Of a stretch of 64,000 nt of DNA, positions 43,887-60,340 are shown one piece after another (position 1 is the stretch's first letter; every line of letters begins with the position of its first letter). Made by a program: the position numbers and the translations under genes. Source of the DNA: Curtobacterium sp. SGAir0471 (GTDB lineage Bacteria; Actinomycetota; Actinomycetes; Actinomycetales; Microbacteriaceae); the NCBI RefSeq assembly GCF_005490985.1, contig NZ_CP027869.1, positions 1,922,001-1,986,000 of the forward strand. Direction: 5' to 3'. The notes under the pieces were generated by a model, which searched no databases, was not told the origin of the DNA, and saw only the letters and a program-made list of their open reading frames with translations.

Positions 43887-45836
43887 CTACTGCACGAGGA
43901 AGAACTGCTCGCCGATGTCGACCCGCGCGCCACGCTCCACCCGGTAGCGACGTCCGGGTTCGCAGCGCCGGATGCTCCCGTCGATGTGCCGGATGACCGT
44001 GCCGTTGCCCGAGTGTCGGTCCGACACCCAGAGGTCGTCGCCGTCACGTCCGAGCTCGAGGTGCGTCTTCGACACCGACTTGCCGGGGTCGTGCACCGTC
44101 AGCAGGTCGTCGAAGCGCTCCGCCGGCTCCGGGCGTGGCAGACGCCCGAGCAGGCCCGTCCCGTGGACGGCGGTGCGCTCCCCGGTGCTGAAGTGCAGCA
44201 CGAAGGGCGCGGTCGACTCGGTCTTCACGACGATGCGCGTCTCCTCGACGTCCTCGTCGGGGTCGAGGTCACCGCTCGACGGCACCATCGCGATGTCGAC
44301 CGGCGGGAGGACCGGCCCGATCGAGCCCGGGATCGGCGGTAGCGGAGCAGCGCGCGGGACCGGCGGCAGGTCCTGATCACCGGTTTCGACGCCCACGCCG
44401 TCGCGGACGTCAGCGTCGGTGGACCGGGCCGAGGACGGCACGGTGGGCGAGACCGGCTCGGGCGGGATCGCCGCGCCGTCGGTCGCGCGCTCGGGCTCCT
44501 CGACCTCGGACCGCGCCCCGTCGACGTCGTCGACGTCGACCGGGCCAGCATCGGCCGCACCGGCATCGGTCGCGACGTCCGCGGCCCGATCACGCTCGGC
44601 GGCTCGGTCGCCGTCAGCGACGAGATCGCCGTCAGCGACTCGATGGCCGTCGGGGGCGCCGGTCGCCGAGTCGTCGTCGAGCTCGGACGCTCCGGACCCG
44701 CCGTCGACGCCGTTCTCCGACGGCTCGTCGCCGGCGCGGACCTCGTCGTCGGCTGCCCAGTCCGGCCGGGCCATCGGCAGCGGGACGACCGGGCCGGTGA
44801 AGGCCGCGGTCACGGTCGGACGGACGGCACCGCACTCCGCACAGAAGATGTCGTCGGGCTCGAGGGTGTGGCCGCACACTGGGCAGGTCGCAGGTCCGCT
44901 CCCCGGAGCGATCAGCGGCGTCGGCGCGGGACGACGATCGACCAGGGGTTCGACCACCGCGGTGTCGCCGGCACGGGACTGCTCGTCACCGGACGACACC
45001 TCGTGCTGGTCCTCGACGGGCGGATCGGCGGCGGCGGGACCACGCCCGACCCACCAGGAGGGTCGCGAGGGCGCTGCCGTCGGCTGCTGCGCGACAGGAG
45101 GAGACCACACCGGGGCCGCAGGCGGTTCGGGGCGCTCCGACGTCGCGTCGGTGGTCGGCGCGAGCCGGGTGCGTTCGGTGTCGGCGAGCTCGCCGGACGA
45201 GGTGCTCCGGTCAGCCGAGGCGAGCGGGTCCGGGGAGGACGGGTACGCATCGGGGTCGAGGGGCGGCTCCACCTCCGGAGCACCCGCCCGCAGGTCGGCT
45301 GCGCCCGACACGGCCGAGGTGCCCGCCGGACTCCCGGTCTCGCCGGCTCCGGCGCCGGTCGCGGGGGTACCGGTCGCGTCGCTACCGGTTGCGGCGGTAC
45401 CGACCGGATCAGCACCGATCGCCCCGGTACCGGTCGATCCCGTCCCGCGGCGTGGTCGGCCCGGGTCGCCGTCCTCGGGTCGCGCCCACGAGGGTCCACC
45501 GACCGGAGCGCCGGGGACGGCGTGATCGGGCGGACCCATCGGCCCGGCCGGTGCTGACGGACGATCGGGCACGGGACCCGGGGACCGCCGGTCCTCGCCG
45601 GTGAGCCAAGCACGCGTCGCGGGGTCGAGCGTCGCCTCCGGCAACCACGCCTCGGCCGCCGGGTCGGGCCGGTGACCGTACTGGTCGGGCTGGCGGAGCG
45701 GCGGCGGTGGGGTGTCGTCCGCGGGCGCCGCCGGAGCGGGCCGGCGGTTCGCCGAGACGTTCACCGACCGCCCGCACTCACCGCAGAAGATCGCGCCGTC
45801 CGGCAGCATCGATCCGCAGTGTTCGCATCTGATCAC
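43887..45836 (-). CDS. Double zinc-ribbon, FHA-domain protein
   Basis: 649 residues, cytoplasmic. Two zinc ribbons of the CxxC...CxxC type: CEHCGSMLPDGAIFCGECG at residues 4-22 and CPVCGHTLEPDDIFCAECG near residue 320. Between and after them lie long Pro/Gly/Ala/Asp-rich disordered linkers with short repeats ([11 protein letters not shown] units). The C-terminal 100 residues are an FHA phosphothreonine-binding domain, with SVSKTHLEL and SDRHSGNGTVI. GTG 45836 overlaps the transglutaminase-like gene by 4 bp. It should read phosphothreonine marks made by the operon kinase, possibly bridging to the membrane partner. Confidence 0.9.
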   Translation of the reverse strand: MIRCEHCGSMLPDGAIFCGECGRSVNVSANRRPAPAAPADDTPPPPLRQPDQYGHRPDPAAEAWLPEATLDPATRAWLTGEDRRSPGPVPDRPSAPAGPMGPPDHAVPGAPVGGPSWARPEDGDPGRPRRGTGSTGTGAIGADPVGTAATGSDATGTPATGAGAGETGSPAGTSAVSGAADLRAGAPEVEPPLDPDAYPSSPDPLASADRSTSSGELADTERTRLAPTTDATSERPEPPAAPVWSPPVAQQPTAAPSRPSWWVGRGPAAADPPVEDQHEVSSGDEQSRAGDTAVVEPLVDRRPAPTPLIAPGSGPATCPVCGHTLEPDDIFCAECGAVRPTVTAAFTGPVVPLPMARPDWAADDEVRAGDEPSENGVDGGSGASELDDDSATGAPDGHRVADGDLVADGDRAAERDRAADVATDAGAADAGPVDVDDVDGARSEVEEPERATDGAAIPPEPVSPTVPSSARSTDADVRDGVGVETGDQDLPPVPRAAPLPPIPGSIGPVLPPVDIAMVPSSGDLDPDEDVEETRIVVKTESTAPFVLHFSTGERTAVHGTGLLGRLPRPEPAERFDDLLTVHDPGKSVSKTHLELGRDGDDLWVSDRHSGNGTVIRHIDGSIRRCEPGRRYRVERGARVDIGEQFFLVQ

Positions 45837-48334
45837 GGTTCGCCTCTGTCCTCACTCGGCCGTCCACGACGCTCGCCGGCCTCCGGACCATCGTAGTCAC
45901 GGCCACCGGGACGCCCCTGGTCGCCCCGGCCCCCGACGCCGACGCCGACGTTCCCCCGACCGGCCGGTCCCGTCCCGGCGACCAGGTGCGGTCGCCCGGC
46001 GCCGGACCAGACGGACCGCAACGACACGGCCGCTCGGAGGCGTTCGCGCCGGTTCCGCCCCTCGCGCAGGCTCTCGATCGCCTCGTCGGTCGCCGACCAC
46101 ATCCGGTCGGCGGTCGCCGGGTCGACGTCGTCCGGCCCGAAGACACTGCGGTCCGCCAGCGCGGCCAGCCCGGTACCGCCACGGCCGGGAGCACCGGCGA
46201 CGGCCTCGCGACGGGTCGCGCCTCCGGGCACGGCGTGCCCCCGGTCGAGCAGCGCGTCGCGGTACTCGTCCCACGCACCGGTGACGCGGGCACGAGGGGT
46301 CGGTGCCCTGCGTCGTCGGCGTCGCCGGACCCGCTTGCACAGCAGCACGGTCGCGAACGGCAGGAGGACGAGGGCCACGAAGCCCAGCGTCGCGAGGACC
46401 CACGGCATCGCCGCGAGCAGCACCTGGAGCCACAGCGGCGGCACCGGCGGTGTCTCGCGGTCGGTCTGCGGCGGCGCCTGCTGGTCCTGGTCCTGCCGCT
46501 CGACGGGCGGCGGCGGGACGACCGTCTCCGGGCGCGTGACGGGTTGCGGGGTCTGGTCCTGCTCCTCCGGGATCTCCCGGACGACGGGGTTCGGGTTCAG
46601 GGTGACCCAGCCCCACTGTGCCGTGTCCACCTCGACCCGCGCGGTCACGTCGGACCCGCGTAGCGTCGTCGTCCCGCCCGAGCTGGCTGTCCGGCCGGAC
46701 GATGAGGCGCCGGAGTCGCCGCCCGGGGTGAACCCCATCACGACCCGCGACGGGAACCCGATCTGCCGCGCCATCAGTGCAGCTGCCACCGCGTACTGCT
46801 CCTGGTCGCCGATCATGACCGGCGCGGTGAGGAGCTCCTGGATGCGGTCCGCGCCGTGCCCGGAACGGCTGGCACGGTCGTCGCCGACGCCGTGGCTGAC
46901 GTAGCCGGTGCTGGTGAGCCACCGGACGGCGGCGACGAGCTTCTCGCCGTCCGTCCGGGCATCGGCGGTCGTCGACTCGACGCGCTCCCGCACGGCGTCC
47001 GGCACCCCGGTCGCCGGCGGGACCGCAGCCGTCCCCGGCCGTGCCGAGGCGAGCTGCTGGTCGTCCGGCTGGTCGGGCAGCACAGCGTCGAGGTCGTAGC
47101 GGGTCCCCGCCCCGACCCCGCCGACGACGGCGCCGGTCGACGTCGCACGGTCGTAGAAGAAGGAGCGCCGCGCCTGCTCTGCGCCGTCCCCGCGGAAGGT
47201 GACCGACTCCAGGTCCCCGACGGTCGGCAGCCAGACGCCACGGTAGGCGTCGACGTCCACTCCGACCCGGAGGTCGCTCCCCCGCACGCCGCCGACGTCG
47301 ACGGTCGTCGGCACCCGCTCGAACGTGCCAGACACGGACGCCCCGTCGTCGCCGCCGACCCGGAACACGACGCCGTCGTACGTGTCGAGGGTCGCGATCC
47401 GGACGAACCCGCCCTGCGGCAGCCCCGAGACGCGCAACTGCGCCGCGTCGGCCGAGCCGGTCTCCTCGTACGCCCGGAAGGTGCTCAGCGGGCTGACCTC
47501 GTCGCGGGGGTCGAAGGGCTTGACGACGTCGGTGCGTGCGACGGTGCGGCCGACCGACGGCGGCGCGACCAGCCCGAGTCCGGTCGCGACGACCGCCGCC
47601 GCCAGCACGGTCCCCGTCCCGACGAGCGCGGGTCGCGCCACGGACCGCCACACCGGGACCGGCGCGCCGACGGTCGTCGCGACGGCGGCCGCCCTGCGGG
47701 AGTGGCGGACGACGAGCGCCCAGACCAGGGCGATCCCGCCGAGCGCGACCGCGGTCGCGACCGGCACATCGAGGCGGCTCGGTCCGACGACGACACCCGC
47801 CGCGAACAGGACGAGGGCCGGGATGCTCGCGGTCTCCGGTCGGGAGGCGCGGGTCGCCACGGTCACGGCCGTCACCGTGGCGACGAGGGTCGTCACGAAG
47901 TACGGCACGAGCAGGGACTCGTAGGACCCGACCGGCAGGCTGACGGTGACGAGGCGCTTCCAGTCGAGCGCGACGCCGGCGAAGAGGTCGACGAGGCCCG
48001 GCCCGGTCGGCAGCAGCCCTGCGGCCTCGGCCGGGACCGCGACTGGCACGCCGGTCAGGGTGAAGACGGCCACGGTCAGGACGCCGACGACCAGCGTCGG
48101 CAGTCGCCCGAGCGCGCCGGCCCACGCCACGGCGGTCCCGGCGACGACCGCGGTGACGCCGGCGGTGACCATCGAGCCGTCGCGGTGGACCGGCCACCAG
48201 GCGGTGCTCGCCACCGCGACGAGGAGCCAGACGACGAGCGTGCCACCGACCAGCCGTGCGGGCGCGCGCCGGCGAGCCGCGCGACGGGTCGCACGACGGC
48301 TGCGCGTCCGTCGGTCCGTGGACGTGGTACTCAC
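45833..48334 (-). CDS. TgpA-like membrane protein with a catalytically dead transglutaminase domain
   Basis: 833 residues. A basic N-terminus and about six transmembrane helices (to residue 240), an outward transglutaminase-fold domain (about 490-600), a Pro/Gln linker, one more helix (PPLWLQVLLAAMPWVLATLGF, about 645) and a cytoplasmic tail (DUF4129-like). The active-site motifs are recognisable but changed: GDQEQYA for GxCxx[FY]A (Cys to Gln), VTARVEV for AHAWVEV (His to Thr), LNPNP for [FL]DPTP (Asp to Asn). The domain should not be an active protease or transglutaminase. GTG 48334 overlaps the DUF58 stop. Position and topology match the MoxR-DUF58-TgpA trio. Confidence 0.9.
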   Translation of the reverse strand: MSTTSTDRRTRSRRATRRAARRRAPARLVGGTLVVWLLVAVASTAWWPVHRDGSMVTAGVTAVVAGTAVAWAGALGRLPTLVVGVLTVAVFTLTGVPVAVPAEAAGLLPTGPGLVDLFAGVALDWKRLVTVSLPVGSYESLLVPYFVTTLVATVTAVTVATRASRPETASIPALVLFAAGVVVGPSRLDVPVATAVALGGIALVWALVVRHSRRAAAVATTVGAPVPVWRSVARPALVGTGTVLAAAVVATGLGLVAPPSVGRTVARTDVVKPFDPRDEVSPLSTFRAYEETGSADAAQLRVSGLPQGGFVRIATLDTYDGVVFRVGGDDGASVSGTFERVPTTVDVGGVRGSDLRVGVDVDAYRGVWLPTVGDLESVTFRGDGAEQARRSFFYDRATSTGAVVGGVGAGTRYDLDAVLPDQPDDQQLASARPGTAAVPPATGVPDAVRERVESTTADARTDGEKLVAAVRWLTSTGYVSHGVGDDRASRSGHGADRIQELLTAPVMIGDQEQYAVAAALMARQIGFPSRVVMGFTPGGDSGASSSGRTASSGGTTTLRGSDVTARVEVDTAQWGWVTLNPNPVVREIPEEQDQTPQPVTRPETVVPPPPVERQDQDQQAPPQTDRETPPVPPLWLQVLLAAMPWVLATLGFVALVLLPFATVLLCKRVRRRRRRRAPTPRARVTGAWDEYRDALLDRGHAVPGGATRREAVAGAPGRGGTGLAALADRSVFGPDDVDPATADRMWSATDEAIESLREGRNRRERLRAAVSLRSVWSGAGRPHLVAGTGPAGRGNVGVGVGGRGDQGRPGGRDYDGPEAGERRGRPSEDRGEP

Positions 48335-49743
48335 GCGGCGGCCGCCGATCGGTGCAGGGCCTGGCGCAGGTCCTCGAGGTAGCCGACGGTCAGCACGGTG
48401 AGACCGGCGACACGGAGCACGCGCGGCTGGGCCTCGGGCTCGCAGGTGACGGCCACGACCTCGACCCCGACGGGGAAGCGCGTCGCGGCGAGCCGGAGCG
48501 CCGGCAGCCCGACCGCAGGACCAACCACCAGGAAGGCGACCGAGATGCCCGCGGTGTCGTTGCCGACGATCCCGGCGACCTCGGCGACGGGCAGGCACGC
48601 ATCGGAGAGTCCGACGGTCGCGAACTCGTCCAGCAGTCGGGTCGGGGTGACGGTGGTCAGCCGGTGCACCGCCCGCACCGGGCGTTTGGCGTACTCCGGC
48701 GTGCGCTCGGACACGACGACGGAGACCTCCCGGCCGTCCCGGACGGCGCGCGCGCCGAGGGACGCGGCGACGCTCACGGCGAGCTCGAACTCGTCGTCGT
48801 CGTCGAACTCGGACCGTCGGGTCGCGAGGGCCACCACGAGGTGGGAGCGCCGGGTGTCCTCGAACTGCCGGACCATCAGCGCGCCGGACTTCGCGGTCGA
48901 CTTCCAGTGGATGGTGCGCGGGTCGTCGCCGGGGACGTACTCACGCACGGCGTGGAACGCGATGTCCGCCGAGGAGAGGTCGGTCGTCGCCTGCCCCTCG
49001 AGGTCGCGGACGAGTCCGGTGCTCGTCGACGGGATCGCGATCGTACGCGGGTGGACGATCACCTGCTCCCGGGCGGTCCAGACGACCTCGCGTCGCACCA
49101 GCCCGACCGGGTCGGCCCGGACGCCGGTGACCGGACCGACGTCGAGGACGCCCCGGCGCACCGTCGGCACCGGCACCAGTTCCTCGAACACGCCACCGGG
49201 GGCGACGGACGGCACCGCGACGTCCACCAGGCCGGAGCCGACGGGCAGCTCGACCGTGGTCGGCACGGACGGCAGCCGCGCAGGGTTCTCCGCGGTGACC
49301 ACGACCCCGGCGTCGTCACCGACCGCCACGCGGTGCTGCGGCAACCGCATGCCCACGACCAGACGGGTCCGCCCGACGAGCGCGACGGCAGCCACGACCG
49401 CGAGCACGGCGCCGGCGAAGCCCACCACCACGACCTCACGCAGTCCGGAGCGGTACCCGACCACGAAGGCGACGACCGTGACGGCGGCGACCGTCCACCC
49501 CAGGCCGGTGACCACCGCGGCGACCTCGGCCCACAGACGTCGTGCGGTCCTCCAGGCCGCCGCCCACGCCTTCGCCGCACCGACGACCGCGTCGGCGGCG
49601 ACGCCCTCGCGGTCGCCGACGAGCCGGGTGCGCACGTTCGTGAGGCCGGCGACCGTCGTCGTCCGTTCGGGCGAGACCGGACCGCGACGGGACCTCGTGC
49701 TGCCGCGTCGCGTCCTGGTGCCGGTGGGACGGCGGTCGGTCAC
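48331..49743 (-). CDS. DUF58-domain membrane protein
   Basis: 470 residues. Disordered basic N-terminus, two transmembrane helices (LGWTVAAVTVVAFVVGYRSG; VVVVGFAGAVLAVVAAVALVG), a beta-rich extracytoplasmic or membrane-proximal part, and the DUF58 core EYVPGDDPRTIHWKSTAKSGALMVRQFE, followed by a von Willebrand A-like fold. DUF58 proteins are constant partners of MoxR ATPases; the pair is thought to assemble or mature membrane or surface complexes. GTG 49743 overlaps the moxR stop by 4 bp. Confidence 0.93.
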   Translation of the reverse strand: MTDRRPTGTRTRRGSTRSRRGPVSPERTTTVAGLTNVRTRLVGDREGVAADAVVGAAKAWAAAWRTARRLWAEVAAVVTGLGWTVAAVTVVAFVVGYRSGLREVVVVGFAGAVLAVVAAVALVGRTRLVVGMRLPQHRVAVGDDAGVVVTAENPARLPSVPTTVELPVGSGLVDVAVPSVAPGGVFEELVPVPTVRRGVLDVGPVTGVRADPVGLVRREVVWTAREQVIVHPRTIAIPSTSTGLVRDLEGQATTDLSSADIAFHAVREYVPGDDPRTIHWKSTAKSGALMVRQFEDTRRSHLVVALATRRSEFDDDDEFELAVSVAASLGARAVRDGREVSVVVSERTPEYAKRPVRAVHRLTTVTPTRLLDEFATVGLSDACLPVAEVAGIVGNDTAGISVAFLVVGPAVGLPALRLAATRFPVGVEVVAVTCEPEAQPRVLRVAGLTVLTVGYLEDLRQALHRSAAAA

Positions 49744-50711
49744 GACGCCGCTCGGTCGGCCGGTGGCGGCGTCTCGACAAGGAGCTGCGCCACGACGCTC
49801 GTGGCGCTGACCCCGTCGAACTCCGCCTCGGCGTCGAGCACGAGCCGGTGGGCCAGCACCGGGACGGCCAGTGCCTTCACGTCGTCCGGTGTGACGTAGT
49901 GGCGGCCCTGCACCGCGGCGTACACACGGGCGGCGCGGACGAGTCCCATCGCACCGCGGACGCTCACGCCGAGCCGGACCTCGCTCGCGGCTCGGGTCGC
50001 GTCGACGAGGCGGGCGACGTAGTCGGCGATCGTCGGGTCGACGTGGACGGTGCGGGCGAGGGCCGCCATCTCCGTGACGGTCGCCGCGGGGACGACGCTC
50101 GGCAGGGGCACCGAGGTGGACGGTGCCGAGGAGGTCTCGAGGATGCGGACGGTCGCGGCGTGGTCCGGGTAGCCGATCGAGGTGCGCACGAGGAACCGGT
50201 CGAGCTGGGCCTCGGGCAGGCGGTACGTTCCGGCCTGCTCGACGGGGTTCTGCGTCGCGATCACCATGAACGGGGCCGCCAGGCGGTGGTTCACACCGTC
50301 GACGGTCACCGCCGACTCCTCCATCGCCTCGAGGAGCGCGGACTGGGTCTTCGGGCTCGCCCGGTTGATCTCGTCGGCGAGCACGACGTTGGCGAACACC
50401 GGGCCCCGGTGGAAGTCGAACTCCTGCGTGCGCTGGTCGTACACGCTGATGCCCGTGATGTCGCCGGGCAGCAGGTCCGGGGTGAACTGGATCCGGTTCG
50501 TCGACCCCTGCACGCTCTGCGCCATCGCCCGGGCGAGGCTCGTCTTGCCCGTCCCGGGGACGTCCTCGAGGAGCAGGTGCCCCTCGCTGAGCATGGTCGT
50601 CACGGCGAGCCGGATGACGAACGTCTTCCCGAGGAGCACCTGCTCGACGTTGGTCACGATCCGGCCGGCGACGTCGGCGAACCAGGTGGCCTGCTCGGGG
50701 GTCATGCTCAT
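49740..50711 (-). CDS. MoxR-family AAA+ ATPase
   Basis: 323 residues, MoxR/RavA-type chaperone ATPase. Walker A LEDVPGTGKTSLARAMAQ, Walker B VLADEINRASPKTQSALLEAMEE, sensor 1 ATQNPVEQAGTYRLPEAQLDRF and the C-terminal lid (VSVRGAMGLVRAARVYA) are intact. It should act on the adjacent DUF58 and transglutaminase-like proteins. ATG 50711 (MSMTPEQ; Met 50705 also possible). 49 bp after the giant surface-protein gene. Confidence 0.96.
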   Translation of the reverse strand: MSMTPEQATWFADVAGRIVTNVEQVLLGKTFVIRLAVTTMLSEGHLLLEDVPGTGKTSLARAMAQSVQGSTNRIQFTPDLLPGDITGISVYDQRTQEFDFHRGPVFANVVLADEINRASPKTQSALLEAMEESAVTVDGVNHRLAAPFMVIATQNPVEQAGTYRLPEAQLDRFLVRTSIGYPDHAATVRILETSSAPSTSVPLPSVVPAATVTEMAALARTVHVDPTIADYVARLVDATRAASEVRLGVSVRGAMGLVRAARVYAAVQGRHYVTPDDVKALAVPVLAHRLVLDAEAEFDGVSATSVVAQLLVETPPPADRAAS

Positions 50712-50760
50712 GCGGTGGTGTCCTCGTTCTCGGGGGCGGGATCGCTGGCGGGTCGAGACC

Positions 50761-53700: not shown

Positions 53701-56598
53701 GGCCTGGGCGACGGGGTTCGCGGCCTGCTCGGCACGGGGGCTGATGCCGACCCGGACCGTCCCGGTCGCGCGGGCGCCGAGCGCGTCGACGACGGTGTAC
53801 GTGAACTCGTCGGTACCGGAGGAGTAGTCCCCCGCGTCGTAGGTGAGCGCGTCAGCGGTGACGTCGCTCACCGATCCCTTCTGGGGGTTGTCGGCGACGC
53901 CGACGAGCTGCACCGAGTCGCCGTCGGGATCGATGCCGTTCAGCGGCACGGTGATGCGCACGGCCTGTCCGGCGACGGCGCGCGCCGTCACGGTCTCGGG
54001 CACCGGCGGGTTGTTCGTCGCGGCGTCGCGCTCCCGCACGGAGATCGACACCGTCGCGTCGGCGTACTGCCCGTCCGGCCCACGGACGCGGTAGACCGCG
54101 GTGTGGTTGCCGGGCGTCTGCGGTGCGAGGTACCGGAGCCGGTCGCCCGACACGAAGAGCAGCCCGCCGTCGCCCGGGACGTTCTGCACGAGCTGCGGGT
54201 CGAGCGTCAGCGGCTCGCCCTCCGGCTGGGTGTCGTTCGCCAGGACGTCGATCTCGGCGACGTCCCCGACCCGGACCGTGGCGGAGTCGGACTGCGCGAC
54301 GGGCGGTTGGATCCGGTCGGGCTTCGGGATCTCGACCACCGTGATCGTCCCGGCGGCGGTGGCCAGACCGTTCGACTCCGTGTACCCGAACGTCACCGGC
54401 CCGTCGAGCGGCGCGGTGAGCGTGACCCGGACGACGTGCTGGTCGAGGATGCTCGCCTGCACCCCGGTGGCGCGTCCGGGCCCGTCGAGCGCCGTGACCA
54501 TCAGGACGCCGCCGGCCGGGTCGGTGTCCGTCGCGGTGACGTCGGTGTCCTTCGTCGACAGGGTGGTGACGAACACCGTCTTGGGCGTCGTGATCGGCGG
54601 GGTCGAGGCATCGGGCGGCGCGAGCACGGTGACCCGGACGACGCCGCTCGCGGTCTTCGTGCCGTCGGTGACGGTGTACTCGAGCTGGTGGTCCCCCACC
54701 CCGGCACCCTGGACGCGGAACGTGCCGGCGTCGTACGAGGGGGTGACCGTCAGGCCGCTCGACGACGACACGCTGGTGAGCGTGACGGTGCCGTTGCCGC
54801 CGCGGACGTGGTCGAGCGGCTCCACCGTGAACGCCTTGCCGGCGTAGCCCTGCACCGCGAAGGCGTCGGCGCGCAGCGGGACGTTCCCCTGCGCCGCGAC
54901 CCGGACGGTCATCGACCCGCGGCCGCGGTCGCGTCCGTCGCTCACGACGAGCTGCACGGTGCGGTCTCCGGTCCGGCCGCTCGCGTTGCGGAAGTCGAGC
55001 AGCCCGTCCGGCGTGGTGGAGACACGGTCGCCGTCCGCGGAGGCGGACTCCAGGTAGACCGGGTCACCGTCCGGGTCGACCCAGTCCGACAGCACGTCGG
55101 TCACGACGTGCCCGTTCTGCACGACGTCGGCCGAGGTGCTGCGGACCTGTCGCGGCGGCTCGTTCTCCGTGTCGGGACGGACGGTCACGCGCACGGTCGC
55201 GCTGTCCGACCCGCCGTTGCCGTCGGTGATCGTGTACGGGAAGGACAGCGTGCCGCGGGCGTCCGCGGTGAGCGTGACCTGCAGTCGCTGCCCGTCGCCG
55301 ACGATCGCGACGCTGCCCTGGGCGTCGGGGATGCTGCCGACCTCGCTGATGACCAGCGGGTCGCCGTTCGGGTCGTAGTCGTTGAGGAGCACCGGCAGGC
55401 TCGTCGTCCGTCCGGGACGCGCGCCGAGCTCGTCGTCCACGGCCACCGGCGGCTTCTGGTCCTTGTCCACCTGCGGGTCGTCGTCCGACACCCGTTCCTG
55501 CTGCCGCTCGTCGTCCTGGTCGACCAGGTCGGACCAGTTGTCGATGAGCTGTCCGCTGCGACCGATCGCCCACGACCGCCCGCTCCGCGGGTCGTTCGCC
55601 ACGACGGTGCCGCCGTTGTGCACGATCTGCAGGTCGTCGGCGTCGGCGCTCTGCGCCAGCCGCTGCAGCCCGCTGCCGCGGCAGGAGTCCATCGCCTGCC
55701 CGCCCGCCCACGCGGCGTAGGTGCACGAGCCGACCACGGTCGGGCGCGCCGCTCGACCCGAGACCCGCAGCGCCGTCCGGTCCACCTGGCCGGAGGCGGA
55801 GACCCGCACCAGGCCCGCGGTACCGGCGACCAGGACCGAGGACGAGGAGTCGGACGACCGCTGCAGCGCGGGGGTCCCGCCGACGCGGTCGCCGAGGTCG
55901 ACGGTGTCCCCGTCGACCGAGAGCTGCCCCGTGGTCCGGTCGAGGACGGCGACGTGGTCCCCGAAGGACGCGACCTGGAACTCGTGGGAACGGTCGAACC
56001 GGACGTCCCACCGCTGCTCGACCGTCAGTTCGGGCCCGACGTCGACGAGTGACGCCCGCCCGGTGCGCGGCGAGTAGACGGTGACCCGGTCGTCGGAGGC
56101 GTCGAAGACGGCGTCGGCACCGAGGGTCAGGTCGGCCCTGGCCGAGGCGTCGAAGTCGGCCAGCCGGGCAGCCGGGGTCGCCCAGAGCTCACCGGTGTCG
56201 CCGTTCCCGACGACGGCGGTGTCCCCGGCGAAGAACACCTGCGGCGACCCGGCAGGCAGGGTGACGGCGTCGCCCACGGTCGCGTCGGCGACGTCGACCC
56301 TGGCCACGGTCCCCTTCGTGCCGTCGACGCTGTAGACCTCGGCGCCGCGCTGCACGACCGAGAGATCGTCGCTCGGTGTCTCGACGGCCGTGTTGAGCGC
56401 CAGGACCCCGGTGTTCGCGCGGCCGACGGCACCGTACTGCGCGGAGGGCACCCACACCGTGCCGTCGCCGAGGTCGATCCGCTGCGTGTGGTACCCGGTC
56501 GACACGACCGCAGCGGTCGCCACCACGGCACCGACGACGACCGACGCACCGAGCGTGACGGCCGCCGACCGGTGCTTCGCCAGGAGCGCCCGGATCAC
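50761..56598 (-). CDS. Giant surface protein: cadherin/Ig-like and fibronectin type III repeats
   Basis: 1945 residues. One N-terminal signal-anchor helix (SAAVTLGASVVVGAVVATAAVV, about 14-36) and then wholly extracellular. Residues about 45-370 form a repetitive beta region like a propeller. From about 385 to 1460 come tandem cadherin/Ig-like domains, with the calcium-type loops DYDPNGDPL (407), DPDGDPV (512), DPDGDSV (891) and SDPEGGQL (986). Two fibronectin type III domains follow (from about 1464 and 1554), then two further beta domains with paired cysteines and a short disordered end. No LPXTG or C-terminal helix. GTG 56598 overlaps the kinase stop (GTGA); an extension to 56622 would run into the kinase frame. 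Adhesin- or sensor-like. Confidence 0.92.
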   Translation of the reverse strand: MIRALLAKHRSAAVTLGASVVVGAVVATAAVVSTGYHTQRIDLGDGTVWVPSAQYGAVGRANTGVLALNTAVETPSDDLSVVQRGAEVYSVDGTKGTVARVDVADATVGDAVTLPAGSPQVFFAGDTAVVGNGDTGELWATPAARLADFDASARADLTLGADAVFDASDDRVTVYSPRTGRASLVDVGPELTVEQRWDVRFDRSHEFQVASFGDHVAVLDRTTGQLSVDGDTVDLGDRVGGTPALQRSSDSSSSVLVAGTAGLVRVSASGQVDRTALRVSGRAARPTVVGSCTYAAWAGGQAMDSCRGSGLQRLAQSADADDLQIVHNGGTVVANDPRSGRSWAIGRSGQLIDNWSDLVDQDDERQQERVSDDDPQVDKDQKPPVAVDDELGARPGRTTSLPVLLNDYDPNGDPLVISEVGSIPDAQGSVAIVGDGQRLQVTLTADARGTLSFPYTITDGNGGSDSATVRVTVRPDTENEPPRQVRSTSADVVQNGHVVTDVLSDWVDPDGDPVYLESASADGDRVSTTPDGLLDFRNASGRTGDRTVQLVVSDGRDRGRGSMTVRVAAQGNVPLRADAFAVQGYAGKAFTVEPLDHVRGGNGTVTLTSVSSSSGLTVTPSYDAGTFRVQGAGVGDHQLEYTVTDGTKTASGVVRVTVLAPPDASTPPITTPKTVFVTTLSTKDTDVTATDTDPAGGVLMVTALDGPGRATGVQASILDQHVVRVTLTAPLDGPVTFGYTESNGLATAAGTITVVEIPKPDRIQPPVAQSDSATVRVGDVAEIDVLANDTQPEGEPLTLDPQLVQNVPGDGGLLFVSGDRLRYLAPQTPGNHTAVYRVRGPDGQYADATVSISVRERDAATNNPPVPETVTARAVAGQAVRITVPLNGIDPDGDSVQLVGVADNPQKGSVSDVTADALTYDAGDYSSGTDEFTYTVVDALGARATGTVRVGISPRAEQAANPVAQADHVTIRPGGSVTVRVLQNDSDPEGGQLTVTAAEPTAAGVTAKVLQRTQVRVTPPRSATEGDFAVLYTVANASGGSSTAFLTVTVDRDAPPLRPEVEDTTLDLQDILRRESVTVDVLQNVFFAEGSTSRLEVGVVDGYGDTAQVTKDRRITIRLTDAAQVVPFSVARSDHPDVVSYGFVHVPGFDDALPQVDRSVGAVTVKSEATVRIPLDRYVVTANGRTAQITDRSTVKATHANGQDLVVDRSTLQFTSSKLFYGNASISFEVTDGSSTNGGKGRVATLVLPIKVTPRSNQPPAFTGSSIDMQPGDSRTLDLTKLTDYPYPDDLGELRYSVVSRPGSGTTATVQGQQLRVSVAEDAPKDTTASIGIGVSDAANQGRAGVVQVGIVGSTRPLVQPGADRAVVQRGTTATIDVLSNDQATNPFPDRPLRVVAIRGLAGGLPAGVSVTPSADRSRLQVTVADRAQPVDAHLQYQVADATDDPSRYVWADVTIAVQDVPDAPGAPTRTGTFQGGKLTLTWATPQANNAPITGYRVQGTNGVAKDCGTATVCTLTGVDPSASYRFSVVARNAVGESEPSSQSAPMSADFVPAAPKGVRVTPSSTTPDQLDVTWSAVGTPNGGSPVSNYAVTVQGPGLSSTKNVGTATSTSFPGAQSGAEYTVRVSARNAADRDGSPVQWNEASATGSAVGAPATPELSATGQPDGSTTAVTLSASEADWAGGTAGWRIAKYAASTPIPSGCSTTGAEKVWNAQTASDRITSRYRYVALADNGLFCTASQPADVQGYQAPDAPTGTLERAQQPGTDGTVGLTASAQSSAPYLYYSVGGGQPVRFSGSASLGAGAGYGLQTSVVFTACAADGQYCTSSDAQTATAFTTRASVVSAVVGQAPVINPPDNNGRIAADGYQISYCRSTILGDVCDDTNPTTRAPWTTSDPVPSGYSSIRVKATVDGQQDPTGARGTVTPATGTDDPPSGTDPSNPAAG

Positions 56599-58004
56599 CC
56601 GGTGCTCCCGATCGTCCCGCACTGCTCGGGGCTCGCGGCGCCCGTCTTGCCGTCACGGTTCACGGCGACCGTGATGCACTGCTCGGCCCCCGTCCCGCCG
56701 GACACGACGAAGGTGGTGCCGGTCTGCTGGCTCGTCGCGCCGGACGAGGTGATCACGTAGGTGTCACCGGGACGGAGCCCCGGGTCGGCCCAGCTGAACG
56801 ACACCGAGTCGGCACCGGCGCGGGCGCTGACGTCGCGGACGGTGGGGATCGACGCGGTGCCCGCGCGTGTGACGAGCAGGACGCTCACCACGGCGACGGC
56901 CGCGAGGACGAGGACACCGGCCGATCCGGCCACCACGACGTTCGTGCGACCCCGCCGACGCGCGACGGTCGCCGATCCGGTGCGGTGGACCGTCCCCACG
57001 CTCTGCACCCCCGTGGAGGCCCCGCCCCGGACGGCGCGCCGCGTGCGGCGCCGGGCACCGGTCCGGGAGGGCGGCTGCAGCTCGCGGACGACGGTCCGGT
57101 CCGCGTCGGACGACGGGGTCGCGACCGCCCACGACTCGACCGCCACCTCGGCGGGGGTCTGCGGGATCCCGAGCTCGGCCTCGACCTGCTGGAGTCCGCG
57201 GACGAACTCCATCACGGTCGCCGGGCGCGTGGACACCCGGCGCGACATCGCCGTGGCGAGCAGTCGCTCGAGCGACGGCGGGACGTCGGTCCTGCCCGTC
57301 GGTCGCGCGCCGCCCTTGTCGATCCGGTCCATCAGGTCCGCCGCGGCGTTCTTCCCCCCGGGGACCTCGAACGGGCTGCGCCCTGCGAGCAGCGAGTAGA
57401 CGGTGGCGGCGAGCGAGTACACCTCGGACTGCACGGTCCCGCGCGACTCGTCGCCGAGCACCTCGGGCGCGGACCACGGGATCGACATGCCCACCGGTTC
57501 GTCCGGGTCGGCGCTGCCGATCGTCGCGGCGATGCCGAAGTCCGACAGGACGGGTGCGCCGTAGGCGGTGCGCAGGATGTTGGAGGGCTTGACGTCCCGG
57601 TGGAGCACGCCTTCCCGGTGGGCCGTCTCGAGCGCCGAGCCGATGCGGATGCCGACGGCCAGGACCTCGGACACGGGGAGCGGCTCGCGACGGTAGCGCT
57701 GGCTGAGCGAGGACGAGCACAGCTCCATGACCAGGTACGGTCGGCCGTCGGCCGCGATGCTGGCCTGGAACACCGTGAGGATGGAGGGGTGCGTGCTGAG
57801 CCGGGCCATCAGGTTCGCCTCGGCCTGGAACATCTGCCGGACGCGCTCGTCGACGACCTCGTCCAGGAGCACCTTCACCGCGACCTGTCGTCGGGGCATG
57901 TCCTGTTCGTAGAGGAACACGTCGGCGAAGCCACCGGAACCCAGGACGTGGACGGGGCTGAACCCGGCGATGACGGGCGGATCGGACGGCAGGCGTCGGG
58001 CCAT
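56595..58004 (-). CDS. Membrane Ser/Thr protein kinase with FN3-like ectodomain
   Basis: 469 residues. Hanks-type kinase at the N-terminus: glycine loop LGSGGFADVFL, VAVKVLL lysine, HRDVKPSN catalytic loop, SDFGIA metal loop and SAPE; all catalytic residues are present. An Arg-rich juxtamembrane segment leads to one helix (VVVAGSAGVLVLAAVAVVSVLLV, about 360-382). The roughly 85-residue ectodomain (VRDVSARAGADSVSFSWADPG) looks like one fibronectin type III domain with two cysteines, not the PASTA repeats of PknB. ATG 58004 has a GGGAGGGAA ribosome site. It heads the operon of the giant protein and MoxR module. Confidence 0.94.
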   Translation of the reverse strand: MARRLPSDPPVIAGFSPVHVLGSGGFADVFLYEQDMPRRQVAVKVLLDEVVDERVRQMFQAEANLMARLSTHPSILTVFQASIAADGRPYLVMELCSSSLSQRYRREPLPVSEVLAVGIRIGSALETAHREGVLHRDVKPSNILRTAYGAPVLSDFGIAATIGSADPDEPVGMSIPWSAPEVLGDESRGTVQSEVYSLAATVYSLLAGRSPFEVPGGKNAAADLMDRIDKGGARPTGRTDVPPSLERLLATAMSRRVSTRPATVMEFVRGLQQVEAELGIPQTPAEVAVESWAVATPSSDADRTVVRELQPPSRTGARRRTRRAVRGGASTGVQSVGTVHRTGSATVARRRGRTNVVVAGSAGVLVLAAVAVVSVLLVTRAGTASIPTVRDVSARAGADSVSFSWADPGLRPGDTYVITSSGATSQQTGTTFVVSGGTGAEQCITVAVNRDGKTGAASPEQCGTIGSTG

Positions 58005-58061
58005 CGGCGTCGTTCCCTCCCCCGGCCCCCGGCCGGCTCGTCCGTTCCTCGCAGCCAGGTC

Positions 58062-58067
58062 ATTCTA
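58062..58067 (-). promoter_or_regulatory. Probable -10 element of the kinase-giant-MoxR operon
   Basis: TAGAAT on the minus strand, about 57 nt before the kinase ATG, in the 155-bp gap after the phosphatase gene. Confidence 0.45.
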
Positions 58068-58120
58068 CGAAGCGCGCTCCGACACCCGGCGGCCGCGAGC
58101 CACCCTGTGGACAGCGACCA

Positions 58121-58137
58121 TCCCCCACTTCGGGGGA
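58121..58137 (-). terminator. Short hairpin after the PP2C gene
   Basis: 6-bp stem TCCCCC/GGGGGA with a 5-nt loop, 23 bp past the phosphatase stop and before the kinase promoter. Confidence 0.45.
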
Positions 58138-58159
58138 CGCCCGAGCCCGACGACCGCGG

Positions 58160-58981
58160 TCAGTGCCGCGGCAGCGTGTCCTCGACGTCGGGGTCCTCGG
58201 GCGCGCCGTCGACCTGCACGACCACCACCGTGACGTTGTCGCGGCCGCCGGCGACGACCGCGTCCCCGACCAGCCGCTCGGCCAGTGCCTGGGCCGCGGG
58301 CACCCGCGCCGCGATCCGGGCGATACCGACGTCACCGAGTTCCTTGGTGAGCCCGTCGGAGCACACGATGTAGCGGTCACCGGCACGCAGCGGCAGCGTC
58401 CACCAGTCGGGCTCCGGCGGCTCACCGAAGCCGACCGCGCGGGTGATGACGTTGCTGTCGGGGTGCTGCTCGGCGTCCTCGGCCCGGAGGAGCCCGGCGT
58501 CGACCATCTCCTGCACGACCGAGTGGTCCACCGTCACGCGCCGCAGTGCGCCGGACTCGATCCGGTAGGTGCGGGAGTCACCCACGTTGAACACGAGCGC
58601 AGCCGGCTGCCCGTGGCTCGCGACGAGCGCGACGCCGGTCACGGTGGTCCCGGCGCCGAGGGCGTTGCCACCGGCCGCCCGCTCGATGTCGGCGGTGGCG
58701 AGCAGCAGGGCCCGCTGGATGTCCTGGCGGCTGGTGAAGTCGCCCGTCGCGACCTGGTCGAGTCGTCGGACGACCGCGTCGCTCGCCCGGTCGCCCGCGA
58801 GGTGCCCACCCATGCCGTCGGCGACGACGAAGAACGGCGCACCGACGACGTAGCTGTCCTCGTTGTGGTCCCGACGTCGACCGACGTCGGTCGCGGCTCC
58901 CCACGAGAGCGTCAGGGGGGTGCCGGCTGCGCCGGGGACGTCGATGGCGTGCTCGGTGGCAGCTCGGCCGAGTTCGGTCAC
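58160..58981 (-). CDS. PP2C-family Ser/Thr protein phosphatase
   Basis: 273 residues, soluble, PstP/SpoIIE-type PP2C. Metal and catalytic motifs: RRDHNEDSYVV, VADGMGGHLAGD, GTTVTGVAL, FNVGDSRTYRI, CSDGLTKELGD and GGRDNVTVVVV. No membrane helix, unlike mycobacterial PstP. It should reverse the kinase and act on the FHA proteins. GTG 58981 (VTELGRAATEHAID) was chosen as the last start that keeps the whole domain; its GTGA overlaps the stop of a 19-codon mini-ORF coupled to the upstream FHA gene. Confidence 0.93.
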   Translation of the reverse strand: MTELGRAATEHAIDVPGAAGTPLTLSWGAATDVGRRRDHNEDSYVVGAPFFVVADGMGGHLAGDRASDAVVRRLDQVATGDFTSRQDIQRALLLATADIERAAGGNALGAGTTVTGVALVASHGQPAALVFNVGDSRTYRIESGALRRVTVDHSVVQEMVDAGLLRAEDAEQHPDSNVITRAVGFGEPPEPDWWTLPLRAGDRYIVCSDGLTKELGDVGIARIAARVPAAQALAERLVGDAVVAGGRDNVTVVVVQVDGAPEDPDVEDTLPRH

Positions 58982-59037
58982 GGTTTCAGGATCGCTCTCT
59001 GGGAGTGGAGGGACGTGCCGGGCGGACGGTTCGTCAC
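58978..59037 (-). CDS. 19-residue bridging mini-ORF between the FHA and PP2C genes
   Basis: GTG 59037 overlaps the FHA stop as GTGA, the frame runs 19 codons (start VTNRPPG) and its TGA overlaps the PP2C GTG, again as GTGA. It may serve only to carry ribosomes across the gap, or mark an ancestral longer N-terminus. No recognisable product. Confidence 0.35.
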   Translation of the reverse strand: MTNRPPGTSLHSQRAILKP

Positions 59038-59708
59038 GGGTTCGGAGGGAACGGTGGGAGGCCGTCGTCCGGTCCGACCCGGAGGTGCGGCGACAGGACC
59101 TCGACGACGTTGCCGTCACCGATCTCGACGAGCGTACCCGTCAGGACGACGATCGACGCACCCGCGGCCATCCGGAACGGCGCGGCGCCCGGGGGTCGCA
59201 CCACGGTGCCGTTCGTCGACCGCAGGTCCTCGACGACGGCGGCCTCGCCCGCAGCGTGCACGAGCAGGTGGGACGAGGAGACCTGCCCGCTCGGCGACGG
59301 CACGGGCACGAGGACGGGACCGTCGTCGACCACCACGCGTGGCGCAGCGGGGCGACGTCCGACGACCAGTGGTCGGTCGAGCCGGACGGTGCGTCCACCG
59401 ATGCGGACGGACGGCGTCCGGCGGCGGACCGGTTGCTCGTCGCTGCGCGGGACGGCCGCACTCGGTGGCGCTCCCCCCGGTGTCCCGGTCGGCGTCGGCC
59501 GACCGGGCCGATCACGCAGGACCGTGTCATCGGCAACCGGTCCGGGCCCCGGTCCGACGCCCCGCACGGGCCGGATCACCGTGTCCCCGTACGGGTCGTC
59601 GTCGCGGAGACCGTCCGGCTCTGCACCGGGAAGGCCGACGGGACCGGCGTCGAGACGCGCACGGATCACCGTGTCGTCGTCGCGCACCGGTTCCCGCTCC
59701 ATGGTCAT
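59034..59708 (-). CDS. FHA-domain protein with N-terminal DTV[IL]R threonine motifs
   Basis: 224 residues, cytoplasmic. The first 90 residues are disordered and carry three copies of DTV[IL]R (Thr13, Thr43, Thr62). A C-terminal FHA domain follows: PLVVGRRP, SSSHLLVHA and DLRSTNGTVV are the phosphothreonine-binding loops. This layout recalls GarA/OdhI, where a kinase phosphorylates an N-terminal threonine that the FHA domain then binds. ATG 59708 overlaps the upstream stop (ATGA); Met 59702 is possible. Followed by the phosphatase. Confidence 0.9.
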   Translation of the reverse strand: MTMEREPVRDDDTVIRARLDAGPVGLPGAEPDGLRDDDPYGDTVIRPVRGVGPGPGPVADDTVLRDRPGRPTPTGTPGGAPPSAAVPRSDEQPVRRRTPSVRIGGRTVRLDRPLVVGRRPAAPRVVVDDGPVLVPVPSPSGQVSSSHLLVHAAGEAAVVEDLRSTNGTVVRPPGAAPFRMAAGASIVVLTGTLVEIGDGNVVEVLSPHLRVGPDDGLPPFPPNP

Positions 59709-60340
59709 CCCACCGTAGACGATCCTGTCGACCCCGTGGGCGTGGCCCACCCGGGTCCGTGTCCGGACCGGACGGCGCGCAGGACCAACCAGCCGAAGGG
59801 GTCGTCCGGGCGCGTGTCCAGGGCGTGCCGCGCGCGGACCTCGGCCCGCGCGGAGGACCCGAGCGCCCAGGCGCACCACGCACCGAGTGCGAGGGCACCG
59901 GCCGCGCCGATCGCCACGTCTCCCCCGACCGCCCCGTCGGCGCGCCAGGTCCGCCAGGCAGCAGCGCACCGGTCACCCGCCACCCGCAGCCGCGCGCGGT
60001 CCGGCTCCGGACCCGATCCGCCGAGCGCCGGCGGCGTCGGGTCGCGGAACGGGTCGAACGGCACGACCGTCCCGGGGTCCGGGCGACCCCGCGAGGCGAG
60101 GAAGCCGACCAGCGCGAAGCGGGTCGCGAGCGCGCCGCACGCCGTCGTCACCGCGACGGCCTGCGGACGCGCGAGCACCTCGTCGCCTGCCGACGCACCG
60201 GCTCGCTGGGGCGCGAACGACGCGGACGGCGGGGACGGCGCGACGAGCGCGGCACAGGCGGCGCGCAGGGTGACCGCAGCGGCGATCTCACGCGGGTAGC
60301 GCACCTGGGTGGACGAAGGGCGTCGTGTCGTGGAGGTCAT
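59705..60340 (-). CDS. Hypothetical membrane-associated protein upstream of the FHA gene
   Basis: 211 residues, Ala/Arg-rich. Moderately hydrophobic stretches at about 20-40 and 58-80 and one clear helix (VAIGAAGALALGAWCAWALG, about 139-158); the tail is charged then Gly/Pro-rich. No family recognised. ATG 60340. Its TGA overlaps the FHA ATG, so it belongs to the phosphatase operon and may be its membrane partner. Confidence 0.75.
   Translation of the reverse strand: MTSTTRRPSSTQVRYPREIAAAVTLRAACAALVAPSPPSASFAPQRAGASAGDEVLARPQAVAVTTACGALATRFALVGFLASRGRPDPGTVVPFDPFRDPTPPALGGSGPEPDRARLRVAGDRCAAAWRTWRADGAVGGDVAIGAAGALALGAWCAWALGSSARAEVRARHALDTRPDDPFGWLVLRAVRSGHGPGWATPTGSTGSSTVG

What the first reader, a model, noticed from the sequence alone, without database searches (positions are those of the whole stretch)
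43887..60340. A two-operon kinase/phosphatase/FHA/MoxR/pseudo-transglutaminase/giant-protein locus as a possible undescribed envelope signalling system
Nine genes sit together: an unknown membrane protein, an FHA protein, a PP2C phosphatase, a Ser/Thr kinase, a 1945-residue cadherin/FN3 surface protein, MoxR, DUF58, a dead TgpA-like protein and a zinc-ribbon FHA protein. Most junctions overlap by 4 bp. The parts are known separately (MoxR-DUF58-TgpA trio; kinase-FHA modules), but their fusion with a giant extracellular protein suggests that a phospho-switch controls assembly or function of a surface structure. That job is inference.
Basis: partly seen in the sequence, partly recalled or inferred. 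Interest (0 to 1): 0.7.

Follow-up and report, generated by a model that had tools for sequence, protein, structure and literature searches.

The report
Actinobacterial PFNA operon with dead transglutaminase
This gene cluster in a plant- and soil-type bacterium belongs to a kind described only from gut bifidobacteria and said to be unique to them; many related bacteria examined here carry it too, with a giant surface protein of similar length and a transglutaminase that has lost its catalytic cysteine, which points to a general cell-envelope machine more than to a gut-specific one.

Summary
In detail: nine co-directional genes at 43887-60340 of a Curtobacterium-like chromosome, 4-bp overlaps at 5 of 8 junctions. 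The system is not undescribed. Its core, kinase - giant Ig/FN3 protein - MoxR - DUF58 - TgpA-like protein, is the PFNA operon of Bifidobacterium (passages of PMC8430577, PMC6803598), with the same order and a giant that aligns collinearly over 1639-1741 residues. New here: (1) papers call PFNA bifidobacterial only; I find it linked in 12 families of the window's order, one family of another order, two of other classes, and a search for the giant's base alone finds it beside a TgpA-like gene in 40 of 41 positive genomes. (2) The 'transglutaminase' is a pseudoenzyme: 0 of 113 readable giant-linked members have the nucleophile Cys; the tree needs one change. (3) Full-length giants keep their length (1756-2156 residues in 82), with some truncated exceptions. 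The 'unknown membrane protein' is not part of the conserved set. Best reading: a phospho-regulated MoxR/DUF58/pseudo-transglutaminase machine that assembles or positions a surface stalk. Membership is firm; mechanism is inferred.

The parts
59705..60340 (-). u1: 211-aa protein, weak DUF4192-like C-terminus; overlaps FHA1 by 4 bp but a clear homologue was seen only in the genus; probably a neighbour only
   Evidence: DUF4192 24.0 bits, cut-off 27.8; phmmer finds it in 2 of 20 family regions, both same genus, with one further marginal match
59034..59708 (-). FHA1: FHA-domain phosphothreonine reader; GR, S..H and NG motifs present
58160..58981 (-). PP2C Ser/Thr phosphatase (PrpC-like), active-site motifs intact
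   Evidence: (NF033484, 185.8 bits, below its cut-off of 230)
58005..58159 (-). 155-bp gap; a TAGAAT box by eye at 58067-58062, possible promoter of the kinase-led unit
   Evidence: the consensus scan found no sigma-70 site
56595..58004 (-). Ser/Thr kinase (Pkb2 counterpart): catalytic motifs intact, one TM (353-387), about 80-residue ectodomain
   Evidence: 32-33% identity over 473-503 aa to Bifidobacteriaceae loci L114 and L116, 40% over 272 aa to L117
50761..56598 (-). giant surface protein, 1945 aa (FN3 counterpart): N-terminal TM 11-36, propeller-like base to about residue 380, Ig/cadherin-like stalk, FN3 domains from 1474, variable C-terminal tip
   Evidence: 30-31% identity over 1639-1741 aa, collinear with Bifidobacteriaceae giants
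49740..50711 (-). MoxR-type AAA+ ATPase
   Evidence: 52-55% identity to Bifidobacteriaceae loci
48331..49743 (-). DUF58 protein, two strong TM segments; the first Asp of the MIDAS-like motif is replaced
45833..48334 (-). TgpA-like pseudo-transglutaminase: six hydrophobic segments, extracytoplasmic transglutaminase domain with C to Q, H to T, D to N, one further TM, cytoplasmic tail
   Evidence: topology from hydropathy only
43887..45836 (-). FHA2: two zinc ribbons, long low-complexity linker, C-terminal FHA domain

Best explanation
The locus is the Curtobacterium member of an Actinomycetota-wide operon known in print only as the PFNA operon of Bifidobacterium. Shown here: gene content and order, collinear homology of the giant, intact kinase/phosphatase/FHA/AAA motifs, a transglutaminase domain whose catalytic Cys is gone in every readable giant-linked member, and full-length giants of nearly constant length. 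Inferred: the giant is a membrane-anchored stalk (TM, propeller-like base, Ig-like rod, FN3 pair, variable tip) reaching out through the wall. MoxR (ATP-driven) with DUF58 and the polytopic pseudo-transglutaminase acts as a membrane chaperone that recognises the giant outside the membrane without cross-linking it, and remodels, positions or switches it. The kinase, whose ectodomain is outside, sets the state by phosphorylating MoxR (reported for B. longum) and perhaps cytoplasmic tails; the FHA proteins read the phospho-sites and PP2C resets them. The conserved base and rod serve a general envelope function; the variable tip meets the surroundings, which in bifidobacteria may have been turned towards host ligands.
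For: Membership: same five core genes in the same order and direction as PFNA; against three Bifidobacteriaceae loci the identity is 52-55% (MoxR), 30-31% over 1639-1741 aa (giant), 28-32% (DUF58), 31-33% (TgpA-like), and these loci show kinase-giant-MoxR-DUF58-TgpA-PP2C-FHA. Mechanism: giant-MoxR-DUF58-TgpA uninterrupted in 112 of 114 giant loci that reach the TgpA gene, co-oriented kinase in 122 of 134 (these stretches were fetched around TgpA hits); independently of that choice, 41 of 99 order genomes have the giant's base and 40 of the 41 have a TgpA-like match downstream on the same strand (places compared by eye). 0 of 113 giant-linked TgpA-like proteins have Cys, yet G[DN]xEQ[YF] around it is kept in nearly all shown, so the domain is held by selection for something other than catalysis; one Cys change on the tree. 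82 full-length giants of 1756-2156 residues, mean occupancy per 50-residue block at least 0.92 to residue 1650, conservation 0.40-0.63 in the rod against 0.19-0.20 in the last 95 residues. Pkb2 phosphorylates MoxR (PMC8430577). Signalling motifs intact.
Against: No direct evidence for any physical interaction or phosphorylation in this organism. No structure could be predicted, so the propeller base rests on profile matches of E 6e-5 to 0.003. MoxR is absent from one locus (L115). Kinase, PP2C and FHA change position between families and are not seen in some stretches, so the switch may be an add-on. Giant length is not without exception: truncated giant-like frames of 456 (L109), 434 (L122) and 419 codons (G207) occur next to TgpA-like genes, and an extra giant without a TgpA-like match on its contig occurs in G124. 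Five Microbacteriaceae genomes of 2.7 Mb or more lack any TgpA-like match, so the system is dispensable. Reports of cytokine binding and of adhesion by bifidobacterial FN3 fit an adhesin equally well.
Confidence: 0.5

Rival explanations
1. Host-interaction adhesin and immune sensor, as proposed for PFNA: the giant binds host ligands through its FN3 region, the kinase senses them, and MoxR folds the giant.
For: Cytokine binding of the Bifidobacterium FN3 C-terminal fragment, induction of the operon by TNF-alpha and adhesion by B. bifidum FN3 are reported (passages). WSx[DPE]S motifs in residues 1460-1660 occur in 2 of 6 Bifidobacteriaceae giants against 3 of 76 others. The tip is the variable part.
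Against: The operon is present outside Bifidobacteriaceae, with named carriers such as Curtobacterium, Salinibacterium, Cryobacterium, Frigoribacterium, Microbacterium and Xylanimicrobium, and in other classes. The six Bifidobacteriaceae rows are one nested clade of the TgpA-like tree. The rod is more conserved than the FN3 and tip region.
Confidence: 0.2
2. Envelope or septum function like that of the mycobacterial moxR1-DUF58 neighbourhood: MoxR/DUF58 act on a cell-wall hydrolase or synthase and the giant is a wall-spanning scaffold for it.
For: MoxR1 is reported to interact with the hydrolase RipA, and the resemblance of that operon to PFNA has been noted in print (PMC12067865, passages).
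Against: No hydrolase or synthase gene is in the window's operon. Whether one recurs beside relatives was not tested: only the operon's own gene models were searched for in the fetched loci.
Confidence: 0.2
3. A MoxR-vWA-beta-propeller conflict (defence) system.
For: MoxR, a DUF58 (vWA-related) protein and a propeller-like domain occur together; MoxR matches bpMoxR at 36 bits.
Against: MoxR matches AAA_3 at 212.7 bits. In those systems the propeller is fused to the vWA component and also on a third protein with a variable N-terminus (PMC7159879, passages); here it is at the base of an Ig/FN3 giant. Pfam shows no effector module in the nine genes. PADLOC was not searched.
Confidence: 0.04
4. 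Active TgpA-type transglutaminase that cross-links the giant or the wall.
For: TgpA of P. aeruginosa has a conserved triad and activity (PMC3507681, passages) and is the only solved relative found at E 0.01.
Against: 0 of 113 giant-linked members have Cys; in the window the Cys, His and Asp positions are Q, T and N.
Confidence: 0.02

Closest known systems
PFNA operon of Bifidobacterium (pkb2-fn3-aaa-atp-duf58-tgm, with prpC, a hypothetical gene and fha in some species)
   Same: Five core genes, order and direction; giant of about 2,000 aa with an FN3 pair near residue 1,480-1,670 (B. longum 1,994 aa, domains 1494-1581 and 1586-1671; window best fn3 stretch 1474-1544); kinase with TM and ectodomain; PP2C and FHA accessories
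   Different: FHA1 and PP2C lie upstream of the kinase and a two-zinc-ribbon FHA protein follows tgm; the carrier is not a bifidobacterium; tgm is called a transglutaminase in print, but the nucleophile position is Ser in the 6 Bifidobacteriaceae loci read here and Gln in the window
MoxR-DUF58-transglutaminase trio (MoxR Proper neighbourhoods, PMC6803598 quoting Wong and Houry 2012, passage)
   Same: Same three genes adjacent, same order
   Different: Trios without the giant upstream keep C and H in 8 of 17 loci; giant-linked ones have no C in 113 readable
TgpA of Pseudomonas aeruginosa (PDB 6g49/6g4h)
   Same: Same domain by profile (E 2.8e-9) and same TM-then-transglutaminase layout (passages of PMC3507681)
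   Different: The aligned His is Thr or Ser in 81 of 115 giant-linked members (59 and 22) and the nucleophile Cys is absent
moxR1-DUF58-vWA operon beside ripAB of mycobacteria
   Same: MoxR next to DUF58; likeness to PFNA noted in PMC12067865 (passages)
   Different: No giant and no pseudo-transglutaminase are described there in the passages read

Membership tests
PFNA operon | kinase-fn3-MoxR-DUF58-tgm, contiguous, this order, one strand | tested here: met
   definition from PMC8430577 (passages)
PFNA operon | fn3 product of about 2,000 aa, N-terminal membrane anchor, FN3 domains near 1,490-1,670 | tested here: met
   1945 aa, hydrophobic segment 11-36, two fn3 stretches with the best at 1474-1544; collinear alignment with Bifidobacteriaceae giants
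PFNA operon | accessory prpC and fha genes in some species | tested here: met
   PP2C, FHA1 and FHA2 present, at partly different positions
PFNA operon | kinase phosphorylates the operon's MoxR | not testable with these tools
   reported for B. longum
PFNA operon | FN3 region binds cytokines | not testable with these tools
   reported for B. longum and B. bifidum fragments
PFNA operon | found only in bifidobacteria (a published claim, not a defining trait) | tested here: not met
   homologous operons outside Bifidobacteriaceae
TgpA transglutaminase (enzyme) | Cys-His-Asp triad | tested here: not met
   Q/T/N in the window; 0 of 113 giant-linked have Cys
TgpA transglutaminase (domain layout) | TgpA_N TM region followed by Transglut_core | tested here: met
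   37.0 and 42.4 bits, both above cut-off; hydropathy segments
MoxR AAA+ ATPase | AAA_3 with AAA_lid_2 and Walker motifs | tested here: met
   212.7 and 84.7 bits; Walker B VVLADEI by pattern; PGTGKT seen by eye in the translation, while my stricter Walker A pattern did not match
MoxR-vWA-beta-propeller conflict system | bpMoxR as best MoxR class and propeller fused to vWA | tested here: not met
   bpMoxR 36 bits against AAA_3 212.7; Pfam shows no propeller on the DUF58 protein

The most novel reading that the evidence does not exclude
PFNA is not a bifidobacterial host-communication operon but an ancient Actinomycetota envelope machine: a MoxR/DUF58 motor with a transglutaminase-derived pseudoenzyme, inactivated once before or at the origin of the system, that builds or gates a fixed-length Ig/FN3 stalk under kinase/phosphatase/FHA control; the immune ligands of bifidobacteria are a late use of the variable tip.
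Probability: 0.45. Interest if true: 0.75.

Novelty: new member of a known kind. Interest (0 to 1): 0.55.

Why it matters
A gene cluster that three papers treat as unique to bifidobacteria (passages), and use to argue for microbe-host immune dialogue, is found across families and classes of Actinomycetota. That opens it to genetics in easily grown species without a host. Its 'transglutaminase' should be re-labelled a pseudoenzyme, which changes what a biochemist would assay. The constant length of most full-length copies of a repeat-built giant protein is an unusual, testable constraint.

Tried and rejected
Chance neighbours: rejected by conserved order and by a search for the giant's base alone. 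Active transglutaminase: rejected by the missing nucleophile. Conflict system: not met. DUF58 MIDAS loss as a second signature: the first Asp is mostly lost in giant-linked members, but the motif is imperfect in plain trios too, so it does not separate the groups cleanly. Cytokine-receptor WS motif at the FN3 B-strand Trp: 0 of 76 non-bifidobacterial rows and 0 of 6 f4 rows, so that position was the wrong test; searched over residues 1460-1660 (WSx[DPE]S; the WSXYS form named in PMC12607495 was not in my pattern) it is 2 of 6 against 3 of 76, mildly against my reading. Promoter/terminator scan: nothing found. NCBIfam: no equivalog above its cut-off for any of the nine genes; only the tandem-95 repeat domain model passed, for the giant.

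Rows dropped and limits: the Tgm tree (quick search) left out L001-L011, the loci L012-L048 except L013 and L043, L050, L051, L054, L071, L081, L088-L092, and rows with over 40% gaps; 105 rows stayed. Its giant label needs 9 changes, not 1: several rows called dead_nogiant (L052, L057, L058, L068, L157, L159) have flanks too short to see a giant, and L109 and L122 carry truncated giant-like frames below my 400-bit threshold. The tool flags long rows (L155, L148, L126) and seven rows of odd make-up. The tree cannot tell gain from loss; I rooted it on the Cys-bearing rows. The giant alignment took only complete frames over 1000 bits (130), which favours full length, and kept 81 after a similarity filter, plus the window; the unfiltered stop-to-stop range of giant-linked loci is 936-2437, median 2000. 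Stretches were chosen mostly for strong hits, so counts over loci are not prevalences. Linkage places places was read by eye; the same was not tallied.
Full report
What is there. Pfam supports every label except the first gene. Five of eight junctions overlap by 4 bp; the others are gaps of 52, 155 and 49 bp. The window lies in a Curtobacterium-like chromosome: the closest named loci are Curtobacterium, and the own genome has one match to the TgpA-like protein.

What it is. The papers on the PFNA operon of Bifidobacterium describe five core genes always in the same order, pkb2, fn3, aaa-atp, duf58, tgm, followed in some species by prpC, a hypothetical gene and fha (PMC8430577, passages). The window has the same core order and direction. 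To compare like with like I looked for bifidobacterial genomes among the unnamed ones. Group f4 of the order search carries the Bif164 16S primer site (recalled sequence, up to one mismatch) in 5 of 7 genomes against 0 of 9 genomes of other groups. Three f4 loci (L114, L116, L117) show kinase-giant-MoxR-DUF58-TgpA-PP2C-FHA (the FHA gene is on the other strand in two of the three). The window's proteins align with theirs at 52-55% (MoxR), 30-31% over 1639-1741 residues in one collinear alignment (giant), 28-32% (DUF58) and 31-33% (TgpA-like). The B. longum protein is reported as 1,994 aa with FN3 domains at 1494-1581 and 1586-1671 (PMC10688814, passages); the window's giant has 1945 aa and its best fn3 stretch at 1474-1544. 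That is membership by gene order, length, architecture and homology.

How far it spreads. [quoted passage not shown] One scan with the window's TgpA-like protein gave 77 named loci. In the closer ones (L012-L078, L084) kinase-giant-MoxR-DUF58-TgpA-FHA is seen as far as the contigs reach, with frames broken in L071; in the diverged ones the kinase is weak (L079, L080, L087), downstream (L082) or not seen (L083, L085, L086), and L081 and L088 are too short. Of 120 genomes of the family, 101 have a TgpA-like match at 1e-5; of the 19 without, 14 are genomes of 1.8 Mb or less and 5 are of 2.7 Mb or more. Of 99 genomes of the order, 84 match at 1e-10, which includes ordinary TgpA proteins. I fetched 40 stretches of the order, mostly around strong hits; 35 hold a giant over 400 bits, L109 and L122 a truncated one, and L126, L131 and L132 none. 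With the stretches, a giant is linked in 12 families of the order (f1, f3, f4, f5, f6, f9, f10, f12, f13, f14, f18, f20; f3 without MoxR). In the class search 83 of 118 genomes match at 1e-10; of 20 stretches then fetched, 4 (three genomes of one further family, f45) are giant-linked, while the other 16 hold TgpA-like genes without a full giant, 14 of them with both MoxR and DUF58 seen alongside over my bit thresholds or in part. In the phylum search 7 of 149 genomes match at 1e-25, four of them outside the class; three of these four (L153, L154, L155; families f62 and f90) have giant-MoxR-DUF58-TgpA with some of kinase, PP2C and FHA, and the fourth (L156) has a trio with a giant-like gene in the other orientation.

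A check free of that choice. Because stretches were fetched around TgpA hits, I also searched for the giant's base alone. In the order sample 41 of 99 genomes have it. Comparing places, 40 of the 41 have a TgpA-like match downstream on the same strand and contig; the one left, G156, has its two matches on different short contigs. Two genomes have an extra base elsewhere (G124, a 2030-codon frame; G148, a 432-codon frame), two have two giants in tandem (G158, G202), and two linked giants are truncated (G163, 457 codons; G207, 419). The f10 giants known are missed by this search, so it undercounts. In the family sample 88 of 120 genomes have the base.

Order of genes. Over all giant loci, 112 of 134 show uninterrupted giant-MoxR-DUF58-TgpA; 20 of the other 22 are stretches that were cut near the TgpA start by design, and the two real exceptions are L115 (no MoxR, confirmed) and L156. 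A co-oriented kinase is present in 122 of 134. Three layouts recur: (A) FHA1-PP2C-kinase-giant-MoxR-DUF58-TgpA-FHA2, as in the window, with the upstream part in 19 of 20 family regions (L180 lacks FHA1 and PP2C, L182 has an extra FHA gene); (B) giant-MoxR-DUF58-TgpA-FHA-PP2C-FHA-kinase, 12 loci; (C) kinase-giant-MoxR-DUF58-TgpA-PP2C-FHA, the bifidobacterial form, 3 loci. The core stays, the signalling genes move. The first gene, u1, has a clear homologue in 2 of 20 family regions, both same genus, so I leave it out of the system.

Print. The seven paper searches that were answered (one search listed 25 of 217) showed me no paper that reports the operon outside bifidobacteria; one review notes that the mycobacterial moxR operon resembles it (PMC12067865, passages). 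I saw listings and starts of abstracts, and passages of seven papers; subscription papers are not held, so this is not proof of absence.

The dead transglutaminase. At E 0.01 the family's only relative in the PDB is TgpA of P. aeruginosa (6g49, E 2.8e-9); its DAHAWVE His falls on a Thr or Ser position in most members here. In the window the nucleophile position is Gln in GDQEQYA, the His position Thr, the Asp position Asn. Across loci, 0 of 113 giant-linked members with a readable column have Cys there (Q 62, D 22, A 9, E 9, S 7, G 4; two of 115 unreadable; many are Curtobacterium near-copies), while 8 of 17 trios without a giant over 400 bits in at least 9 kb of flank have Cys and His; 27 more have too little flank, 3 of them with Cys. 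The other nine of those 17 are also dead: L122, which carries a truncated giant (214.9 bits); L137, L143 and L148, which have a smaller giant-like protein of 74-183 bits; and L126, L138, two genes of L140, and L156. So loss of Cys is wider than the giant, but the giant is not seen with Cys. On a tree of 105 rows with the two catalytic columns left out, the 11 Cys-bearing rows form one side of a branch (SH-aLRT 98) and the Cys state needs one change; the six Bifidobacteriaceae rows are one nested clade (98). The motif G[DN]xEQ[YF] is kept (GFEEQYA in L155) although the catalyst is gone, which I read as selection on a binding surface.

The giant. Eighty-two full-length giants from these groups measure 1756-2156 residues counted from window residue 9, and mean occupancy per 50-residue block is at least 0.92 up to residue 1650 (only complete frames over 1000 bits were taken, see the exceptions above). 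Repeat number therefore rarely drifts, unlike many repeat adhesins (general knowledge). Conservation per block is 0.36-0.50 in the base (1-400), 0.40-0.63 in the rod (401-1450), 0.35-0.49 over the FN3 region (1451-1650) and falls to 0.19-0.20 in the last 95 residues. Cys 292, 306, 1508 and 1514 are each conserved in 93-94%. There is one N-terminal hydrophobic segment (11-36) and no C-terminal one.

How it most likely works. Shown: intact kinase, PP2C, FHA and AAA motifs; hydrophobic segments in kinase, DUF58, TgpA-like protein and giant. Reported: Pkb2 phosphorylation of MoxR in B. longum. Inferred: MoxR and DUF58 at the inner face, together with the pseudo-transglutaminase whose dead domain sits outside, act on the giant's base to assemble, position or switch it; the kinase sets this through MoxR and FHA readers, and PP2C resets it. 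I put identity as PFNA at about 0.95 and this mechanism at about 0.5.

Against it. Nothing physical is shown in this organism; the operon is dispensable in some large genomes; MoxR is missing in L115; some giants are truncated or doubled; cytokine binding and adhesion by bifidobacterial FN3 are reported, and WS motifs are commoner in the f4 giants (2 of 6 against 3 of 76), which fits a lineage-specific host role for the tip.

Verdict. The locus is a new member of a known kind; the interest lies in showing that the known kind is not what its literature says: neither confined to bifidobacteria nor equipped with a catalytic transglutaminase.

Noticed in passing
L079, L080, L083, L086, L087; also L093 and L162 (both genome G171): Some Microbacteriaceae carry a diverged form of the operon (TgpA-like protein at about 31-36% identity to the window's), again with giant, MoxR, DUF58 and a dead transglutaminase domain; G171 has both forms.
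   Followed up: partly
G158, G202; G053, G077, G091, G118; extra giant-like frames in L083, L086, L099: Two or three giant genes in tandem upstream of one MoxR-DUF58-TgpA set, so the giant can be duplicated while the trio stays single.
   Followed up: no
L137, L143, L148: Trios with a smaller giant-like protein (74-183 bits, 785-947-codon frames) and a nearby kinase; Ser and Leu at the Cys and His positions. A possible sister system.
   Followed up: partly
L140: Two MoxR-DUF58-TgpA trios with three kinase genes in one 20-kb stretch, no giant; Cys position Ala or Ser with His kept.
   Followed up: no
L115: Operon without MoxR: DUF58 follows the giant directly, the kinase is on the opposite strand.
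   Followed up: partly
window 42846-43778 (-): Gene after FHA2: 310-aa protein with strong hydrophobic segments near the N-terminus and at 168-194, no Pfam match at 0.1 or NCBIfam match at 0.01; seen after FHA2 in many Curtobacterium loci and in no other genus among the named loci.
   Followed up: partly
window 58062-58067 (-): TAGAAT box about 60 bp upstream of the kinase start, in the 155-bp gap; B. longum pkb2 has a reported start site 40-41 bp upstream of its start codon.
   Followed up: no
L071 (Curtobacterium flaccumfaciens Sample7_18): Kinase, giant, TgpA-like and FHA2 genes are each split into several frames, perhaps assembly errors.
   Followed up: no
DUF58 proteins of giant-linked loci: An RRSH-like motif precedes the degenerate MIDAS position in many giant-linked DUF58 proteins and in few plain trios.
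   Followed up: no
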